From contig JAJRQK010000006.1 in NCBI GenBank assembly GCA_024280295.1, forward strand, positions 62,001 through 126,000: a stretch of 64,000 nt of DNA. The letters run 5' to 3'. The DNA comes from Bacteroidota bacterium (GTDB lineage: Bacteria; Bacteroidota; Bacteroidia; Flavobacteriales_D; Crocinitomicaceae). Numbering within the stretch: position 1 is the first letter of the stretch; each line of letters begins with the position of its first letter. Shown here piece after piece: positions 34,932 to 60,191 of this stretch. The notes beneath the pieces are model-generated. The model made no database searches. It was not told the DNA's origin and saw only the letters and a list, made by a program, of their open reading frames with translations. The translations under genes were made by a program, and so were the position numbers.

Positions 34932-35090
34932 TTACTTTTTAAGAATTTTTTTAGTTATCCATTGTTGACCGTCAAAGAACTTAGCGAGATAAATGCCACT
35001 CTTATTATCAGTCAAATCCAAAGAGATGGTCAATCTGTTTACGTTTTCTTCCCCAAGTATTTTCTTTCCTTGAATGGTGTATATTTCGTA
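34932..35090 (-). pseudogene. Detached C-terminal half of a T9SS sorting domain
   Basis: In the same frame as the 35091-38120 gene, after its TAA, 52 further codons run to TAA 34932-34934. They read YEIYTIQGKKILGEENV... SGIYLAKFFDGQQWITKKI, ending LKK. This is exactly the end of a type A sorting domain: a strand, a GIY motif and a basic terminus. Together with the NPSSG motif upstream of the stop it rebuilds a complete domain. The sequence is untranslated unless the stop is read through or is a sequencing error. Confidence 0.85.
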
Positions 35091-38000
35091 TTACAAGATA
35101 TTCAGATTAGAATTAACTAAAAACAATCCAGACGAAGGGTTAGGTGAAATGGTGAGATTAGCCTCTACCATTTTACAACTTGATGATATATATATACTTG
35201 CTGAACGTCTATATACGCCATTATGATCTGTTTGCTTGATTCGGTAGAAATATCCTTCGGTATTCTGCGAAAATGGATTCCTGTCTTTAAACCCGTAATC
35301 ATGGATACTTGTCGAATTCCCTGCTCCATCTACTATTCCGATAACCTCATAATTAATTCCATGAATACTCCTTTCAACAGAAAAATAGTCGTTATCATTC
35401 TCTGATGCTGTTTGCCAATGTATTGATATTTGAGCATTTGAGCATTCTCCCTCAAACGAAATCATTTGGATTGGCAATGCAATATTATCGACCGTTGCAC
35501 TGTACATCCCATTTCCATGAGTCCCGATTAATAATTGTAAATCTGAATGTCTGTATTTTAAATCCGTTACAAGTGCGTATCCAACCGTTGCTGATCCTTC
35601 TTGTAACCAATTATCAACCCCTGGATTCTGATTAGAATAGAGTCCTTTTGCCGTTCCAACAAAGTAAATAATGTTCCCTGCTACTTCTGCAATAGCTGCA
35701 GACCGAACAGAGTGTCCTGAAAGATTCCCTTCTACCAATGTCCATGTCGGTGTACCTGCCGTTGCATTTGTGGTCAAAAAGATACTAGGAATACCATAAT
35801 TTGAATAGGTAGCAAGGACAATATCGGGGTTAGTTGGATGTACAGCAAGACCTTTCACAACAGATGGAAATCCAACGGTTGCTCCTGGAGGTGTAATATC
35901 TATTAGTGAACCTAGATTAGGAGCGCCCCTTGGATCAGAGAGTCGAAAAATATGTCCTTCGTCTCCTCCAATATACAGCTGACTCGTTGCAGCAGAGTAC
36001 GCACCACCTGTCGTAGCATAGCTTTGAATAAAATCTGTTCCTGGCAATGTCCCAAGATTATTCCACGTCCCCGTAGTTACTGTTGTTGCATTATTTGTTC
36101 GGTAAGCAGTTCCACGCCCAGCATAATAAATGGTATTACTTCCAACTGGATCTAAATGAAAATAGGTCACAAATTGACTGGTTGAGCCTCCTGGAGTTAT
36201 CGTTGCAAATGTTGGGCAATCCCTAACCATATTGCCATTTTGTGTGCTCATAAAGAAAGGTAGACATGGATCTGCATTAGAAATTGCACATGCAGCTCCA
36301 TCACCACTAAAAACACGAGACTGTGTAGTGTTATCTGGAAATCCCAAGGCAGTTCCTCCTGCCATCGTTCCATTATCCTGTGCTCCACCTATAACAGCAT
36401 TATTTCCAGTAGCTGGGTGCATATTGACATGGTAAAATTGGTATGTGTCGTAGTTATTACTCAAATTTACCCACCCAACTGTAGCAGCATTCACGTTGAT
36501 CGTTCGATGAACACCTCCATCCGTTCCAGAATATAATAAGTTTGTATTGTTAGGATCAAAGACCAATGTATGTACATCGGGATGATGCTCAACCCCACCT
36601 CCATTATTCCATATTGCAAACGTACTTGGACCGTCATATCCTCCAATTCTTAAGAATTCTGGGTCAGACGTTATATCCGTAATCTTATACGCATTTGTGC
36701 TTCCTATAACAACAAAATTTTGATCATCGGGCTTCACTGAAACGGCCATGTCATATCCCCCCTGCGTATTAAAAGGATCATTTCCAGCACTTCCGCCAGG
36801 TTCATCGGGTATCTTTGCTGCAAAACTAGTCCAAGTTGTTGTCAATTGATTCCATCTCCAAATATCACAATCTCCAGGGGATGGAGTTGATCCTGCTGAT
36901 TCGTATAGTACATATAAAATATCTGGATTCGAAGGTGCAATAGCGAGAACCCCTCTTCCAGTCTGATTCCAAGCTCCTGGCGCACCATTTGTCGCAATTC
37001 TAGACCAGGTTCCAGCGCCAATTCCTGTGGCATCGTTAGAGGTCCAAACACCTTCAGTAGCTGCTGGCGTTACACCTGAGAACACAGCATAAACTCTACC
37101 TCCTGGTGTTACTACTACATCTGTGAAATGAGCGGTATTGAAACCTCCCACAGCCGTTAATTCTGTTATCCAATTGGATGCTGAAGCATCAAAACGATAA
37201 ATTCTCCCTAAAGCAGCAACGAGCAAATCTCCCGTTGTTGGGTGAACTTGAACACGAGAAATTAGATCAAAACGACGGTCGAAAGTTGTCTCAATATTCG
37301 CCAAAGGGAAAGACATTTGAGTCCAAGATAAGCCGTTATCCGTTGATTGGAATACTCCAAACCCTAAATAGAATGCACCAGATTCACTTGCACTGTTGCC
37401 AGCAGACTCGCCAGTTGCATAGTACCAAATATTATTGAACCCAGGTCTAGGGTCCTGAGCAATTGCTGTAACATTATGCCGATCGTTTAAATCAGAAACC
37501 ATTGTCCAAGAAGTGCCACCATTTGTTGTGCGAAACACTCCTCCTGAAACTCCACCCGCGAGAATAGTATTACCCGTTATATCACCTGCATCAAATACTA
37601 GAGATCTTGTTCTCCCACCAAAATTTGAAGGTCCACGGTATGCAAAAAATCCTGCAAATTTTTCTTCTGAGTAATTCGCTTTTGGAGCTGCTAAAGCTTG
37701 CTTTAGCTCTAATTCTTTTTCCTCAAGTGGAATTGTTCCTGTAATTGGATTTACCTGTAATTTATGTTCATAATTGAGTCTTTCCTCTGTAAAGCGTGCA
37801 GGAAATTCTTCTTCAATCAAATGTTTACCAAGCACTTTTGGAATGTTTTTCCCCTCTATCAAAATTGTAGGTTCATCTGGTAGATCAGAAACAAATTTTG
37901 CGTGATTAATACCTCTTAAAATAGTTATATTGGTATGTTTTTCTTGTTTTTGCGCTACTTGTTCACACTTTTTTTTGGTAAAATGCTTCTCAATTTTTAA

Positions 38001-38120
38001 TTCGGCAGCACGGGTATCCTTAGGATTTGTAATTTCATTCTGATTTGTATTTATATAGACAACTGCACAAAAAATAGTGCTAAGAGTGAAAAAAGTTAAA
38101 TAGCGTCGTAGAATGTTCAT
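35091..38120 (-). CDS. Secreted beta-propeller (BNR/sortilin-like) protein, cut before its T9SS sorting domain
   Basis: A 1009-residue secreted protein. It has an N-terminal membrane/signal segment (about 8-24) and a prodomain-like region to about 150. From about 156 it carries repeated beta-propeller units of the Asp-box type (GGVSGGVFRTTNGGTSWTMV, GVFQSTDNGLSWTQM, SGTDGGVHRTINV). Near 900 an Ig-like domain begins (CSNAQISIHWQTASENDNDY), followed by the start of a type A sorting domain (ISPNPSSGLFLV). The frame ends at TAA 35091-35093, in the middle of that domain; the missing 52 residues follow in frame. Without them, surface display through the T9SS should fail. A sialidase or protease-type role for the propeller is possible but not shown. 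Confidence 0.85.
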   Translation of the reverse strand: MNILRRYLTFFTLSTIFCAVVYINTNQNEITNPKDTRAAELKIEKHFTKKKCEQVAQKQEKHTNITILRGINHAKFVSDLPDEPTILIEGKNIPKVLGKHLIEEEFPARFTEERLNYEHKLQVNPITGTIPLEEKELELKQALAAPKANYSEEKFAGFFAYRGPSNFGGRTRSLVFDAGDITGNTILAGGVSGGVFRTTNGGTSWTMVSDLNDRHNVTAIAQDPRPGFNNIWYYATGESAGNSASESGAFYLGFGVFQSTDNGLSWTQMSFPLANIETTFDRRFDLISRVQVHPTTGDLLVAALGRIYRFDASASNWITELTAVGGFNTAHFTDVVVTPGGRVYAVFSGVTPAATEGVWTSNDATGIGAGTWSRIATNGAPGAWNQTGRGVLAIAPSNPDILYVLYESAGSTPSPGDCDIWRWNQLTTTWTSFAAKIPDEPGGSAGNDPFNTQGGYDMAVSVKPDDQNFVVIGSTNAYKITDITSDPEFLRIGGYDGPSTFAIWNNGGGVEHHPDVHTLVFDPNNTNLLYSGTDGGVHRTINVNAATVGWVNLSNNYDTYQFYHVNMHPATGNNAVIGGAQDNGTMAGGTALGFPDNTTQSRVFSGDGAACAISNADPCLPFFMSTQNGNMVRDCPTFATITPGGSTSQFVTYFHLDPVGSNTIYYAGRGTAYRTNNATTVTTGTWNNLGTLPGTDFIQSYATTGGAYSAATSQLYIGGDEGHIFRLSDPRGAPNLGSLIDITPPGATVGFPSVVKGLAVHPTNPDIVLATYSNYGIPSIFLTTNATAGTPTWTLVEGNLSGHSVRSAAIAEVAGNIIYFVGTAKGLYSNQNPGVDNWLQEGSATVGYALVTDLKYRHSDLQLLIGTHGNGMYSATVDNIALPIQMISFEGECSNAQISIHWQTASENDNDYFSVERSIHGINYEVIGIVDGAGNSTSIHDYGFKDRNPFSQNTEGYFYRIKQTDHNGVYRRSASIYISSSCKMVEANLTISPNPSSGLFLVNSNLNIL

Positions 38121-42235: not shown

Positions 42236-45200
42236 ATGATCAAACAACTTATAAATATCGCGATGTTTGCTGTGTTTACACTTGCGCTAATGTCGCCATC
42301 TTGTGAGCCTAATGATATCGGAGAATCCAATATATCTGAAGAAAAACCGCGAGAGGAAATTCAATCCAACATTCAATCGATTAATTATTCCTTTAATGAT
42401 GATTATAAAGAAATGTGGAAACAAGTCGATTCATTGCAAAAAATTGGCTTGTATAAATCTGCATTGAATGTCGTTCAAGTGATTTTTATAGATGCTCGAA
42501 AGGCGAAAAATTCACCCCAAGTAGTCAAGGCTGTCATTCACAAAATGAAGTACAATTCTTACCTAAAGGAAGATGATTTTGTTGTCGCAATGAATGAGCT
42601 GAACTCACTCACTAATGAAACTAGCTTTCCATTAAAGCAGATCATTCATACTGTAATAGCGGACACTTATTGGAATTATTATCAGTCCAATCGGTGGACA
42701 TTTATTAATCGTACACAGACGGTGAATTTTGAGAACAATGATGTACGCACATGGGACTTAAAAACGATTCTAAATCACGTTAAGAAAAATTACCTTTTGT
42801 CACTTTCAAGTAAAGATAGTTTACAGCATGTTTCTATTCGCGATTTTACGGATATACTTTCAGGTAAGGTTGTTCATTCAATAGAGCAGCGACCTACACT
42901 TTATGATTTTCTCGCTCATCGGGCACTGGATTATTTTGAAAATCCTGAACAATCAGTGAGTCGCCCTAAAGAGAAATTTGTTATGGATAGGCGGAATTAT
43001 TTCGGGAATGCTTCTGAATTTTTAGCCCTGAAAGTTGACTCAGACGATACACTATCAAGACTTCTTTATGCGATTGAAATATATAGAACCCTTACGTATT
43101 TTCATTTAAAAGATCAAGACCCATCGGCAATTGTTGACCTAGACCTTCGTAGATTGCGTTTTGCTAGAACGAACTCGGTGAAAGATGGCAAAGATGACCT
43201 CTACTTGAAAGGCTTGGGAAATCTTGCAAAAAAGTATTCTGCTCACCAATCATCGACTGAAGTGGATTTTCGAATTGCCTCTTTTTACGATCGACGTGGA
43301 AATAATTATTCTCGAAAGCTGACAGATCATCAGTGGGACAAGAAGAAAGCGTTGGAGATTTGCCGCAATGCGATCATTACTCATCCTAAATCACTCGGTG
43401 CAGAGCAATGTGCAGCATTGATGAATACAATTCAACAGAAAAGCGTTTCATTTAACAGCGAAGGTGCATATACTCCCAACGTGAAGGGAAAAATGTTGAT
43501 CAGCTATAAAAATGTTGATAAACTATACTTCAGAATGGTAAAGGTTGATGGGGATTATTTCTTCAAAAATAAACTCTATGGTAAAGATAGGATTCAAACT
43601 TTACTAAAGCTTAAATCAATGAAAAATTGGGAGTTAGAGATGAATAACCCTGGTGATTATCAGTCACACAGCACTGAAATTGTGCTGCCAGAAACGGATC
43701 TTGGACAATATATCGTTCTTGCCTCCCCAGATCCAAATTTCAAGCTTTCAGAGAACGCTATTGCGCATGGTTCATTTTGGTCAACGACTCTTTCTTTCTC
43801 TTTTAGACGAAATTCGAATCAGACAATTGACGCATACATCACTGATCGTGAAAGTGGAAAGCCATTATCAAACGTCAAGGTTTCTGTTTATATCAACAAG
43901 TATAGCTACATCTCAAGATCCAATGAATTTGTGAAGAAGGAATCTTATCGAACAGATGATTTTGGAATGATATCGATTAAATCGACACAAGAGTATCGCT
44001 ACATCTATTTGGATCTTCAGAAAGGATCAGATCGATATAACAATAGCAGTCAACTTTATCAGTACCGCGATTATTCCGACAATCAAGCTAATACCACAAC
44101 AAACCTATTCACCGATCGAGCAATTTATCGACCTGGACAGACAATTTACTTCAAAGGAATAAAGATTAAGCATCAAAAGGACAAGCACACAATCGTTGCG
44201 AATCAGAGTGCTGAGGTGGAACTATTTGACGCCAATTATCAGAAGGTTTCAAGTGTAAATGTCACTACCAATGAATATGGAACGTTTAGTGGTTCATTTA
44301 CAGCACCATCTTCCGGGATGAACGGAAGAATGACCATCAGAGAACGAGACGGGAGTAAGTCAATTTTGGTTGAAGAATATAAACGACCCAAGTTTGAAGT
44401 TAAGTTTGAACCAATTACGGGAGTTTACAAAATTGGGCAGAAGCTAAAGGTTACTGGGAAAGCGAAAGCATACGCTGGTTCAAATGTTGATGGTGCAAAA
44501 GTTCAATATAGAATTACTAGATCGTGTTATTTCAATTATTGGACATGGTATCGCTGGGGATATTATCCAAACTCTCAAACGATAGAAATCAAGCACGGTG
44601 AACTCAAAACGGATGAAAACGGAGCGTTTAGTGTAGAATTTGAGGCAAAAGAAGATCCATCGATTAATAAAAAGTACTTCCCAACTTACTCTTATTCAAT
44701 AACTGCGAATGTTACTGACCTCAACGGAGAAACTAGAAGTACAACTGGGAGTGTGAGCGTTGGATATAATTGCATGAACTTAAGTCTTGGAATAGAAACT
44801 AAGTTTGATCGAACTAACAAAAACAGATTCAAAGTTTTCACAACGAATTTGAATGGAGAAAAAATTGAAGCTTCTGGATCGATTAGCATCACAAAATTGA
44901 TCGAGCCAGACCGACTTTATCGCACTTCACTTTGGGAACAACCTGACATGCAATCGTTTTCCGAGGAGGATTATAATAAGCTTTTTCCACATGATAAGTA
45001 CGATCAAGAATATGATCACACGAAATATAAAAAAGGAGAAATTGTTGGCGAGTACGATTTCGATACAGCCAAAGGTGACTCTGTTGACTTCACAACAATG
45101 AAAACATGGCAACCGGGCAGATATGTAATTGAAACTTCATCGATTGATGCGTTTGGTCAAAAAGTAGAAGACGTTAAATACGTGACCATTTTAAATCAGA

Positions 45201-47539
45201 AAAGCGATCAGAATCCCACGAATGATATTTGGACACTCACTGCTTTGAATAATTATTGTGAGCCTGGAAAAAATGCCGAGTTTCTAATTTCTTCTGGCGC
45301 AAAAGATCTCATTATTCTCTATGAGATTGAACACAAAGGCAAAATTGTTTCAAGAAAATTATTGACATTGAGTACTTCACAAATGAAGATTTCAATTCCT
45401 ATTCTTGAAAAACATAGAGGTAATTTGACGGTGCATTTTAGCACAGTTAAATTTGGCAGACGACATTCATCTAAGGAAACAATTACAGTTCCTTATAGTA
45501 ATAAAGTACTCGATATTCAGTTCGAAACATTTCGAAATAAATTATTGCCAGGTTCTAAAGAAGAATGGAAATTGATTATTAAAGGTCCTCGTGGAGAAAA
45601 GGTTGCTGCTGAACTTCTCGCTGCTATGTATGATGAGTCACTGGATGCATTTGCTTCTAATTCCTTCTATATGAACATTTACAATTCTTATTACTCTGAC
45701 TCATATTGGGGGAGTAGTAGCTTCGATCAATCATTCTCCTCACTGTATAATGATCAATGGAATAAGTACATGTCAACTCCTTCTCGGAAATATAATTTTT
45801 TGAATTGGTGGGGAACAGTTCAAGTTTATACGGGGAGCCTAGATTATCGTTATCGTGGCTTTGTTGGTGGGATAGATGGAAATGCACCTCTTATGGATCT
45901 GTATTCTGAAGAAGCAGAACACAATGAAGCAAAACCTCCAACCGCCATTATGAAAGAAACTCTTTCTGTGTCAAACATCAGTATCGATAAAGATGAAGCT
46001 GTAGAATTAGATAGGTCCGAATTATCAATATTACCTGTTGGTGAAAATCAATCGAGTGCAGGTTTGAGTGAAGTTAATGCACGGACAAATTTAAATGAAA
46101 CTGCTTTCTTTTTTCCGCAAATGGAGACAAATGCACAAGGCGAAATTATCTTGAAATTTACTATTCCCGAAGCATTAACTAAGTGGAAGTTTTTGGGAAT
46201 GGCACACACCAAAGATCTAAAGATTGGATATGTCCAAGAGTCCGTTGTTACTCAAAAGGAGTTGATGGTAATGCCAAATCCACCAAGATTTTTCAGAGAA
46301 GGTGATAAGATGTCGTTTACGGCAAAAGTTTCAAATTTAACCGAAGACGATATGTCTGGTGAAGCCCAATTGTTCTTGTTTGATGCACTTTCTATGAAAC
46401 CAGTCGATGAACTTTTTAAAAACGCTTCGAAATCAATTTCATTTACAGCAAAGAAAGGACAGAGTGCTAAACTAGCTTGGGAGATTGAAATTCCCGAAGG
46501 ATTAGGAGCTGTAACTTATCGCGTTGTGGCAAAATCTGGAAAGTATTCAGATGGAGAAGAAATGGCAATTCCGATTTTATCGAATCGTATATTGATCACA
46601 GAATCAATGCCACTGCCGAGTAAGGAAATTGGAACGAAAAATTTCACCTTCACTAAATTGGTGAATAGCGCATCCTCATCTAGCCTAAAACATCATAAGT
46701 TGACTTTAGAGTACACGTCAAATCCGGCTTGGTATGCAATTCAAGCAATGCCTTACATGATGGAATATCCATACGAATGCGCCGAGCAAACATTTACACG
46801 ATATTACTCGAATGCACTTGCGTCGAGTATAGTGAACTCTAATCCAAAAATTAAAAAGGTTTTTGAAAGTTGGAAGGAGAGCAATCCAGATGCATTCCTA
46901 TCCAATTTAGAAAAGAATCAAGAGTTAAAATCACTCATGTTGGAAGAAACTCCATGGGTACTCGATGCGCAAAATGAAAGTGAGCGAAAGAAACATGTCG
47001 CGCTATTATTCGATTTGAACAAAATGGATAATGAACTTAGCAAAGCGATGCGGAAATTGCGGAAGATGCAGGTGATTAATGGTGGATGGCCATGGTTTCC
47101 AGGCATGAAGGAAAGCCGATATATTACACAGCATATTGTTACAGGACTAGGTCATTTAGATCATCTTGGTGTGAAGGGAATACGAGATGATACTAGAACC
47201 TGGGAAATGGTTAAAGCTGGCGTTTCTTATCTTGATATGCGTTTAATTGAAGATTATGAATGGTTGAAAAAGCATGATGATAACTATCTTACCGAGCAAC
47301 ATATTGGACAGATTCAAGTGCATTATTTGTATGCTAGAAGTTATTTCAAAGATTTGCCAATGAATAGTCGATTGCAAAAGGCATTTGATTATTATCAAAA
47401 TCAAGCAGAGACTTACTGGACCAAATTCAATCTGTACAACGAAGGTATGATTGCGCTTCAAGCAAAGCGTTACGAAATTAAGAAACTACCTGAAATGGTT
47501 ATGGCTTCGATTAAAGAGCGAGCAATTATCCATGAATAG
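42236..47539 (+). CDS. Alpha-2-macroglobulin family protein, N-terminal 1767 residues before an in-frame stop
   Basis: Bacterial alpha-2-macroglobulins trap proteases in the periplasm using a thioester. The N-terminus has a signal segment with a possible lipidation cysteine (SPSC, about 20-23). An MG2-like domain shows TDRAIYRPGQTIYFKGIKI near 625-643, followed by EEYKRPKFEVKF and the domain boundary IGQKLKVTGKAKAYAG. The A2M domain begins near 1285 (FFPQMETNAQGEIILKFTIP). The thioester motif CAEQ is present, with C1515 (codon 46778-46780), in PYECAEQTF. The frame stops at TAG 47537-47539, inside the C-terminal helical barrel. The remainder follows in the same frame after two codons. Confidence 0.88.
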   Translation: MIKQLINIAMFAVFTLALMSPSCEPNDIGESNISEEKPREEIQSNIQSINYSFNDDYKEMWKQVDSLQKIGLYKSALNVVQVIFIDARKAKNSPQVVKAVIHKMKYNSYLKEDDFVVAMNELNSLTNETSFPLKQIIHTVIADTYWNYYQSNRWTFINRTQTVNFENNDVRTWDLKTILNHVKKNYLLSLSSKDSLQHVSIRDFTDILSGKVVHSIEQRPTLYDFLAHRALDYFENPEQSVSRPKEKFVMDRRNYFGNASEFLALKVDSDDTLSRLLYAIEIYRTLTYFHLKDQDPSAIVDLDLRRLRFARTNSVKDGKDDLYLKGLGNLAKKYSAHQSSTEVDFRIASFYDRRGNNYSRKLTDHQWDKKKALEICRNAIITHPKSLGAEQCAALMNTIQQKSVSFNSEGAYTPNVKGKMLISYKNVDKLYFRMVKVDGDYFFKNKLYGKDRIQTLLKLKSMKNWELEMNNPGDYQSHSTEIVLPETDLGQYIVLASPDPNFKLSENAIAHGSFWSTTLSFSFRRNSNQTIDAYITDRESGKPLSNVKVSVYINKYSYISRSNEFVKKESYRTDDFGMISIKSTQEYRYIYLDLQKGSDRYNNSSQLYQYRDYSDNQANTTTNLFTDRAIYRPGQTIYFKGIKIKHQKDKHTIVANQSAEVELFDANYQKVSSVNVTTNEYGTFSGSFTAPSSGMNGRMTIRERDGSKSILVEEYKRPKFEVKFEPITGVYKIGQKLKVTGKAKAYAGSNVDGAKVQYRITRSCYFNYWTWYRWGYYPNSQTIEIKHGELKTDENGAFSVEFEAKEDPSINKKYFPTYSYSITANVTDLNGETRSTTGSVSVGYNCMNLSLGIETKFDRTNKNRFKVFTTNLNGEKIEASGSISITKLIEPDRLYRTSLWEQPDMQSFSEEDYNKLFPHDKYDQEYDHTKYKKGEIVGEYDFDTAKGDSVDFTTMKTWQPGRYVIETSSIDAFGQKVEDVKYVTILNQKSDQNPTNDIWTLTALNNYCEPGKNAEFLISSGAKDLIILYEIEHKGKIVSRKLLTLSTSQMKISIPILEKHRGNLTVHFSTVKFGRRHSSKETITVPYSNKVLDIQFETFRNKLLPGSKEEWKLIIKGPRGEKVAAELLAAMYDESLDAFASNSFYMNIYNSYYSDSYWGSSSFDQSFSSLYNDQWNKYMSTPSRKYNFLNWWGTVQVYTGSLDYRYRGFVGGIDGNAPLMDLYSEEAEHNEAKPPTAIMKETLSVSNISIDKDEAVELDRSELSILPVGENQSSAGLSEVNARTNLNETAFFFPQMETNAQGEIILKFTIPEALTKWKFLGMAHTKDLKIGYVQESVVTQKELMVMPNPPRFFREGDKMSFTAKVSNLTEDDMSGEAQLFLFDALSMKPVDELFKNASKSISFTAKKGQSAKLAWEIEIPEGLGAVTYRVVAKSGKYSDGEEMAIPILSNRILITESMPLPSKEIGTKNFTFTKLVNSASSSSLKHHKLTLEYTSNPAWYAIQAMPYMMEYPYECAEQTFTRYYSNALASSIVNSNPKIKKVFESWKESNPDAFLSNLEKNQELKSLMLEETPWVLDAQNESERKKHVALLFDLNKMDNELSKAMRKLRKMQVINGGWPWFPGMKESRYITQHIVTGLGHLDHLGVKGIRDDTRTWEMVKAGVSYLDMRLIEDYEWLKKHDDNYLTEQHIGQIQVHYLYARSYFKDLPMNSRLQKAFDYYQNQAETYWTKFNLYNEGMIALQAKRYEIKKLPEMVMASIKERAIIHE

Positions 47540-58526: not shown

Positions 58527-60191
58527 ATGAAAAGAAAATTACTCATCGTATGCGCAGCTGCTTTTTTGAGCAGTTCTTCATTCGGACAAGTAACGGATTT
58601 AGGTGGACCACTTAGTTGGAAAACCCCACTTAAAAGCGCAAGTCTTCTTCAAACGAAGAAAATGAAATCATTCGACATGAAAACTGTTGAAACACAAGAT
58701 TTAGTGAACGACCAAGACAAGTCAATTCCTTACCGTTTTGGATATAAATTCGATACCGATTTCACCCTAGACAACTCAGGTTCATGGGAAAACCTAGCTG
58801 ATGGTGGACGCGTTTGGCGATTGGCGATTATTTCTGATGATGCCATAACAATGAATTTATTGTTGGAAGATGTTGTAATTCCAAAAGGTGCATCCTTGTA
58901 TTTGCACGATGCGGAAAACACAAATCGAGTTGGCGCTTATACTGCACGAAACAATCGAGAAGATGGACTTTTAGGGACTGAGCTTATGCGTGGAGATCAC
59001 ATGGTCGTTGAGTATTATGAACCAGCAAGTGTGATCGGACAAGGGTCCTTTACCATCGTGAATGTGATTCATGGTTACAGAACACTAACTCATGTTCAGA
59101 ACAATTTGACAAAAGCTTTAAATAGTTCAGGTAATTGTAACATTGATGTTCAATGTCCTCTTGGTGACTTATGGAGCAATCAAATTCGCTCTGTTGCTAT
59201 GATCGTAGTGGGTGGCTCAGGTATTTGTACCGGAGCCTTGATCAACAATTCATGCAATGACGGCACTACCTATTTTCTTACCGCAAATCACTGTTTAGGT
59301 GGAAGCACAGGAAATTGGGCTTTCCGCTTCAATTGGGAGGTATCGGCAGGTGATGCTTCACTATCATGCGCAACGACAACAAATACTGCAGGAACATACA
59401 ACAACTCATCAAACTGGGACCAGTCAGCAAATGGAGCAACAATATTAGCAAGCAATGGTGCTTCAGATTTTGGCTTATTGCAAATTGACAATATGACTGT
59501 AACTGATGCATCTAATTGGGGGCTTTTCTATGCCGGGTGGAACAATGTTGATACAGACGGAACTATTACAAGTGCTATTGGGGTTCATCACCCTTCTGGA
59601 GACATAAAGAAAATTTGTGAAGAACAAGATGCTCCTTACCATAGTGTAGTTAGTGGGGCTGATGTTTGGTGGATCGATGCTTGGGATAGCGGAGTAACAG
59701 AACCCGGATCATCTGGATCACCGTTATTTGATCAACAAGGTCGTATTATTGGTCAACTTTTTGGTGGTGCAGCTGCATGTAACGGTACAAGTAATAACAA
59801 TCAATACGATTTTTATGGTCGTTTTGGGGTTTCTTGGGGATTAGGCGCTAGTACTTACCTCGATCCTACAGCTTGTGGTGGAGGAAGTGCAACTTCTAAC
59901 CCTGGATATGATCCAAACCCATCAACTTCTTCTCTTGATAAGTTAGTGTCAAATTTATTCACCGTAAGTCCGAACCCTAGTAATGGATTCTTCAAACTAG
60001 ACCTCGGATCAACATCTTTGAAAGGTGCTAACGTTACCATTTCAGATATGACAGGTCGAGTTGTTTTAACTCAATCAATCAATTCGATTTCAACATCATT
60101 GAATCTTTCATCTGCTGATAATGGAGCGTACATTGTTCGTGTTATTTCATCAGAAGGATCTCAAGTTAAAACGATTGTCTTGAATAAATAA
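58527..60191 (+). CDS. Trypsin-like serine protease with T9SS type A sorting domain
   Basis: A 554-residue secreted protease of the lysyl endopeptidase type. A signal peptide (1-20) is followed by a prodomain. The catalytic residues are H255 in FLTANHC, D314 in GASDFGLLQI and S396 in EPGSSGSPLFDQQG. Paired cysteines surround them (ICTG and NSC near 233-243). The C-terminal 80 residues are a type A sorting domain: FTVSPNPSNGFFKL, ISDMTGRVV, and NGAYIVRVISSEG ending VLNK. Unlike the 35091-38120 gene, its sorting domain is intact. Confidence 0.93.
   Translation: MKRKLLIVCAAAFLSSSSFGQVTDLGGPLSWKTPLKSASLLQTKKMKSFDMKTVETQDLVNDQDKSIPYRFGYKFDTDFTLDNSGSWENLADGGRVWRLAIISDDAITMNLLLEDVVIPKGASLYLHDAENTNRVGAYTARNNREDGLLGTELMRGDHMVVEYYEPASVIGQGSFTIVNVIHGYRTLTHVQNNLTKALNSSGNCNIDVQCPLGDLWSNQIRSVAMIVVGGSGICTGALINNSCNDGTTYFLTANHCLGGSTGNWAFRFNWEVSAGDASLSCATTTNTAGTYNNSSNWDQSANGATILASNGASDFGLLQIDNMTVTDASNWGLFYAGWNNVDTDGTITSAIGVHHPSGDIKKICEEQDAPYHSVVSGADVWWIDAWDSGVTEPGSSGSPLFDQQGRIIGQLFGGAAACNGTSNNNQYDFYGRFGVSWGLGASTYLDPTACGGGSATSNPGYDPNPSTSSLDKLVSNLFTVSPNPSNGFFKLDLGSTSLKGANVTISDMTGRVVLTQSINSISTSLNLSSADNGAYIVRVISSEGSQVKTIVLNK

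What the first reader, a model, noticed from the sequence alone, without database searches (positions are those of the whole stretch)
34932..38120. An ochre codon removes the T9SS sorting domain from a secreted beta-propeller protein
The open frame of the 1009-residue protein stops at TAA 35091-35093. The next 52 codons, in the same frame, encode the rest of the type A sorting domain (YEIYTIQGKK...GIYLAKFF...ITKKI). Type A domains normally have NPSSG, an IQG/I strand and a GIY motif with a basic end; here these are divided by the stop. If real, the protein would be made but not displayed on the surface.
Basis: seen in the sequence. Interest (0 to 1): 0.6.

Follow-up and report, generated by a model that had tools for sequence, protein, structure and literature searches.

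The report
Stop codon cutting off secretion tag
A bacterial gene for a secreted propeller-shaped protein carries one stop codon inside the tag that would export it to the cell surface, most likely a recent loss-of-function mutation (or a sequence error) of an ordinary kind.

Summary
Observation confirmed. The minus-strand frame 38120-35091 (1009 aa) ends at TAA 35091-35093; the next 52 codons in frame (34935-35090) complete a type A T9SS sorting domain, which matches TIGR04183 over 72 of 72 positions across the stop. Of 150 sorting domains scored in this genome (205 candidates) it alone has a stop inside. Of 30 homologue loci examined, 26 end with an intact domain. The part behind the stop scores 36.6 bits against a median of 39.0 for 149 comparison rows: no decay. 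TAA is the usual stop here (86 of 148 distinct sorting-domain genes), and none of 31 tRNA genes found reads a stop codon. PorU and SprA lack stops. Published Porphyromonas mutants predict retention in the periplasm. Best reading: a recent nonsense mutation in one of about 150 cargo genes; a sequence error cannot be excluded without reads. Of three other same-genus genomes, one has three comparable interior stops in 150 domains, two have none, so the event is ordinary. No homologue close enough to date it was found.

The parts
35091..38120 (-). open frame of 1009 aa: N-terminal hydrophobic stretch, beta-propeller, linker domain, first 19 residues of a sorting domain, TAA stop
35493..37784 (-). 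beta-propeller of the Sortilin-Vps10 / xyloglucanase / BNR kind (residues about 113-876)
   Evidence: profile of 22 proteins matches xyloglucanases in the PDB, best E 5.4e-17; Sortilin-Vps10 in 18 of 22 members; homologues
35151..35483 (-). linker domain (about residues 880-990), shared with other cargo of this genome; in the propeller homologues the sorting domain comes soon after the propeller
   Evidence: 23 of 25 other places in the genome lie in the region of residues 835-1008; (with the sorting domain, 72 of 186 identical to a frame on contig C74)
35094..35150 (-). 19 codons of the sorting domain before the stop (ISPNPSSG...)
35091..35093 (-). in-frame TAA at about position 20 of 72 of the sorting domain
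34935..35090 (-). 52 codons after the stop: rest of the type A sorting domain (YEIYTIQGKK...GIYLAKFF...ITKKILKK)
34932..34934 (-). second TAA, where the domain would otherwise end

Best explanation
A recent nonsense mutation in a T9SS cargo gene. The gene encoded an exported Asp-box-type beta-propeller protein with a linker and a type A sorting domain. The stop removes the last 52 residues, which hold the conserved G-containing loop (IQGKK) and the basic C-terminal end that the T9SS is known to need in another species. Shown: the frame, the stop, an undecayed remainder, the domain in homologues, PorU and SprA without stops. Inferred: the 1009-residue protein is made, crosses the inner membrane, is not passed on by the T9SS, and stays in the periplasm or is degraded; the gene is a young pseudogene or a strain-level loss.
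For: 1 of 150 scored sorting domains of the genome has a stop inside (205 candidates). 26 of 30 homologue loci end with the domain (these are the loci held of 38 homologues matched). Pfam finds the domain in 21 of the 22 aligned proteins, the window's being the miss, but those 21 were picked after from loci with the domain. The part behind the stop scores 36.6 bits, median of 149 rows 39.0, 60 below and 89 at or above. Neutral model: of 745 mutated copies per rate, 68% at 0, 25.5% at 0.05, 7% at 0.10 and 1.2% at 0.15 substitutions per site reach the target's score without a new stop. PorU 1192 bits, SprA 2352 bits, no stops. Interior stops recur in the genus: 3 of 150 in G020, 0 of 150 in G009, 0 of 150 in G046.
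Against: An undecayed remainder is equally expected of a sequence error, a population variant or a domain still translated. The 19 residues before the stop score rather low (17.0 bits, median 20.4, 36 of 149 below). No homologue above 36% identity was found in the 240 family genomes (E up to 1e-40), or above 38% in 399 of the order, so age and selection were not measured.
Confidence: 0.62

Rival explanations
1. Sequence or assembly error: the cell's gene is intact and the protein is ordinary T9SS cargo.
For: The remainder is undecayed and the 1009 codons before the stop are open. Apparent defects in genes of T9SS-type proteases have been corrected by resequencing before: in Tannerella forsythia KLIKK protease loci the database sequence held errors including point differences, deletions and insertions (PMC4404884, section on re-sequencing read).
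Against: None of the other 149 scored sorting domains of this assembly has a stop inside, which speaks against a generally error-rich assembly, though decayed domains rank low and 55 candidates were not scored. No reads to decide.
Confidence: 0.25
2. Selected truncation: the protein now works in the periplasm, or surface display was lost to advantage.
For: The 1009 codons before the stop remain open.
Against: None of the 30 homologue loci examined is seen to end at that place (26 with the domain in frame; the other 4); an undecayed remainder is not expected of an old truncation.
Confidence: 0.08
3. Readthrough or recoding: TAA is sometimes read as an amino acid, giving a mix of periplasmic and displayed protein.
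For: The remainder scores like a used domain.
Against: TAA ends 86 of 148 distinct other sorting-domain genes; TAAT, the context found here, is their commonest four-base ending (37 of 149 rows). TAA ends 21 of 42 main window ORFs. None of 31 tRNA genes found has a stop-reading anticodon; that list lacks Ala and Ile tRNAs, so it is incomplete. RNA around the stop folds no better than shuffles (z 0.78).
Confidence: 0.04

Closest known systems
T9SS type A cargo proteins (TIGR04183 / PF18962 sorting domain)
   Same: Full 72-position match when the stop is passed as X; PorU and SprA present
   Different: The translated open frame lacks the last 52 residues of the domain and matches no Pfam family at E 0.01
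RgpB and other cargo with engineered sorting-domain changes in Porphyromonas gingivalis
   Same: Loss of the domain's end: removing two C-terminal residues keeps RgpB in the periplasm (PMC11285876, passages); the targeting signal of HBP35 lies in the last 22 residues (PMC4804311, passages)
   Different: A natural sequence, not engineered; localisation untested. Not all small changes matter there: removing one residue of RgpB or the last two of PPAD is tolerated, and G699P in RgpB had no significant effect (PMC11285876)
Asp-box beta-propellers (Sortilin-Vps10, GH74 xyloglucanases; the GH74 label is partly recalled)
   Same: Profile matches
   Different: Activity unknown; catalytic residues not checked; the single-sequence fold was unusable (mean pLDDT 29.5)

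Membership tests
T9SS type A cargo | complete C-terminal sorting domain in the translated protein | tested here: not met
   0 Pfam families at E 0.01 for the 1009-aa protein; not listed by a profile of the genome's other sorting domains at E up to 10
T9SS type A cargo | complete sorting domain in the DNA | tested here: met
   TIGR04183 1-72/72 across the stop
T9SS type A cargo | a T9SS in the same genome | tested here: met
   PorU and SprA over cut-off, no stops; other components not searched
T9SS type A cargo | Sec signal peptide | not tested
   hydrophobic N-terminus seen by eye only
recent nonsense pseudogene | homologues intact past the stop | tested here: met
   26 of 30 loci; L114 carries similarity to the end of its homologues after a frame break, L119 and L124 run into the end of the sequence held, L123 loses similarity part-way; 8 further homologues were not examined
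recent nonsense pseudogene | remainder relaxed or decaying | tested here: inconclusive
   no decay visible; compatible with a very recent stop
recent nonsense pseudogene | the stop is in the cell's DNA | not testable with these tools
   no reads and no same-species genome
stop-codon readthrough or recoding | suppressor tRNA, reassigned TAA or stimulatory RNA structure | tested here: not met
   the tRNA list is incomplete and low-level leakage cannot be excluded

The most novel reading that the evidence does not exclude
The stop is a tolerated or programmed switch: most product stays in the periplasm while a small readthrough fraction carries the full sorting domain and reaches the surface, which would explain an undecayed remainder behind a normal stop codon.
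Probability: 0.04. Interest if true: 0.6.

Novelty: new member of a known kind. Interest (0 to 1): 0.15.

Why it matters
It is a clean natural example of a cargo protein losing its export tag by one stop codon, and a caution for annotation: the translated frame alone shows no sorting domain. In a genome with about 150 such cargo genes, one broken tag is unremarkable. If reads confirm it, the strain is a ready test of what an untagged T9SS cargo does in the periplasm.

Tried and rejected
Close orthologues: searched 40 genomes (own plus 39 relatives), the 34 genus genomes held, own included, 399 of the order, own included and drawn from a larger group, the 240 family genomes held, own included, genome contigs (24 stretches, 3 relatives, 25-43% identical over parts only; records of the window's own or a very near genome may be left out there) and viral contigs (2 stretches, no relative). 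At E up to 1e-40 the best identity was 36% in the family and 38% (a partial frame) in the order, so dN/dS was not attempted. Recoding and suppression: not supported (see rivals). RNA structure at the stop: none. Fold of the single sequence: mean pLDDT 29.5, not used, no fold search made. phmmer of the window protein alone against the PDB gave nothing useful (2 matches, best E 0.15); the propeller assignment rests on the profile. Promoter and terminator scan near chance. GC and GC3 of the remainder (0.33; 0.38) differ from the rest of the gene (0.40; 0.26), but 52 codons are too few to read anything into it. Precedent searches, open-access library only: 'type IX secretion' + 'premature stop codon' + 'C-terminal domain' 0 papers; 'type IX secretion' + 'pseudogene' + 'C-terminal domain' 7 papers, passages of two seen and one section of one of them read; 'T9SS' + 'nonsense mutation' 3 papers, listing only; two further listings only. 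I saw no description of a natural stop inside a sorting domain in these, which is no proof of absence.

Limits of my counts: the genome-wide searches score only 150 of 205, 261, 208 and 221 candidates, so decayed domains may be missed. The three other genomes were chosen by me from 33 of the genus for good assemblies. The comparison set has 149 rows but 148 distinct sequences: L064 picked its neighbour's domain, so one of the 149 domains is missing; some searches were not rerun. In one search the ends that were mutated had also trained the profile, which favours them, so the limit on neutral change is loose. In one search, 16 of 89 loci were read on the wrong strand; replaced. Of G020's 5 flagged domains I count 3 as interior stops; one is the normal end overrun by the match (L247), one a multi-stop wreck (L249). 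In one search I aligned the window protein with 21 of the 29 homologue loci L096-L124, leaving out L107, L114, L118, L119, L120, L122, L123, L124 and also L251. In one search I counted stops of 42 of the 47 ORFs, leaving out the gene itself and four that overlap a neighbour.

Full report
What is there. The minus strand of the window has an open frame of 1009 codons, 38120 to 35091, ending in TAA at 35091-35093. In the same frame 52 sense codons (34935-35090) follow and end at a second TAA, 34932-34934. With the stop passed as X, the end of the frame matches the type A T9SS sorting domain over its whole length: TIGR04183 1-72 of 72, 45.9 bits, and PF18962 1-73 of 75, 40 bits. The stop lies near position 20 of 72, after 19 residues of the domain.

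What the protein is. A profile of the window protein with 21 homologues matches xyloglucanases and other BNR propellers in the PDB (best E 5.4e-17), and Pfam's Sortilin-Vps10 model is found in 18 of 22 members. The window protein alone matches no Pfam family at E 0.01 and nothing useful in the PDB. The propeller covers about residues 113-876. It is followed by a linker domain that recurs before sorting domains in the same genome: of 25 other places matched, 23 lie in the region of residues 835-1008 and 2 in the propeller. A near one, a 427-aa frame on contig C74, is 39% identical over linker plus sorting domain (72 of 186). In the propeller homologues the sorting domain comes soon after the propeller. 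A structure predicted from the single sequence was unusable (mean pLDDT 29.5).

The genome. The window is part of a 3.46-Mb genome in 74 contigs. The three relatives found in genome contigs are from Crocinitomix (two) and Fluviicola (one), similar over parts only, so a member of that group of the Bacteroidota is likely; this is a guess and the species is not known to me. PorU (1192 bits) and SprA (2352 bits) match over their cut-offs without stops; other T9SS parts were not searched. 150 sorting domains were scored of 205 candidates. So the export machine is likely there and cargo is abundant.

Is the stop unusual? Within this genome, yes: 1 of 150 scored. In three other genomes of the genus that I chose for good assemblies, G020 has 5 flagged of 150, of which 3 are single interior TGA codons, one is the normal end and one a multi-stop wreck; G009 and G046 have 0 of 150 each. 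The searches score only 150 candidates per genome, so decayed domains may be missed.

Do homologues end there? Not as far as seen. One search matched 38 homologues besides the gene itself at E up to 1e-40; DNA of 30 was held. Of these 30, 26 end with a sorting domain in the same open frame. Of the other four, L114 continues after a frame break to the end of its homologues, L119 and L124 run into the end of the sequence held, and L123 loses similarity part-way. Pfam finds the domain in 21 of the 22 aligned proteins, the window's being the one without; the 21 had been picked, so this count adds a second method, not new cases. The homologues are 27-32% identical to the window protein over the alignment, and none above 36% was found in the 240 family genomes.

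Has the remainder decayed? Not visibly. The 52 residues score 36.6 bits with a profile of the other domains, against a leave-one-out median of 39.0 for 149 rows (60 below, 89 at or above; the rows hold 148 distinct sequences). The 19 residues before the stop score 17.0 against 20.4 (36 below, 113 at or above). In a simple neutral model, 68% of unmutated ends reach the target's score without a new stop, 25.5% at 0.05 substitutions per site, 7% at 0.10 and 1.2% at 0.15. So the stop is young, false, or the remainder is still under constraint.

Readthrough or recoding. TAA is the commonest stop of the other sorting-domain genes (86 of 148 distinct) and of 42 main window ORFs (21). The context TAAT is also the commonest four-base ending (37 of 149 rows). 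Of 31 tRNA genes found none has an anticodon for a stop codon, although the list lacks Ala and Ile tRNAs and so is incomplete. RNA folding at the stop is unremarkable (z 0.78). I find no support for readthrough; low-level leakage cannot be excluded.

Expected effect. In P. [quoted passage not shown]). The targeting signal of HBP35 lies in the last 22 residues (PMC4804311, passages). In the window's protein the matching loop (YTIQGKK, by the conserved G; the match to RgpB is mine and was not aligned) and the basic end both lie behind the stop. So the truncated protein should stay in the periplasm or be degraded. This is inference from another species.

Verdict. The best explanation is a recent nonsense mutation in one of about 150 cargo genes (0.62); a sequence error is next (0.25), and only reads or an independent sequence can separate the two. 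Selected truncation (0.08) and readthrough (0.04) are minor. The case is a well-formed example of an ordinary event, so interest is low.

Noticed in passing
L245, L246, L248 (genome G020, contigs C5, C4, C1): Three sorting domains in a same-genus genome, each with a single interior in-frame TGA and an otherwise good match; whether they are mutations, errors or something particular to TGA is open.
   Followed up: partly
L092, L093 (genome G000, contig C42:92249-102498): Two neighbouring frames of 1737 and 1738 aa with partial PorU-type (NF033707) matches under the cut-off, besides the PorU on contig C60.
   Followed up: no
window 58527-60191 (+): A second T9SS type A cargo gene in the window (554 aa) with a sorting domain without stops at 59964-60182.
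   Followed up: no
window 42236-47539 (+): A 1767-aa open frame, not examined.
   Followed up: no
L250 (genome G022, contig C95): A cargo gene with an in-frame TAA in the linker before its sorting domain.
   Followed up: partly
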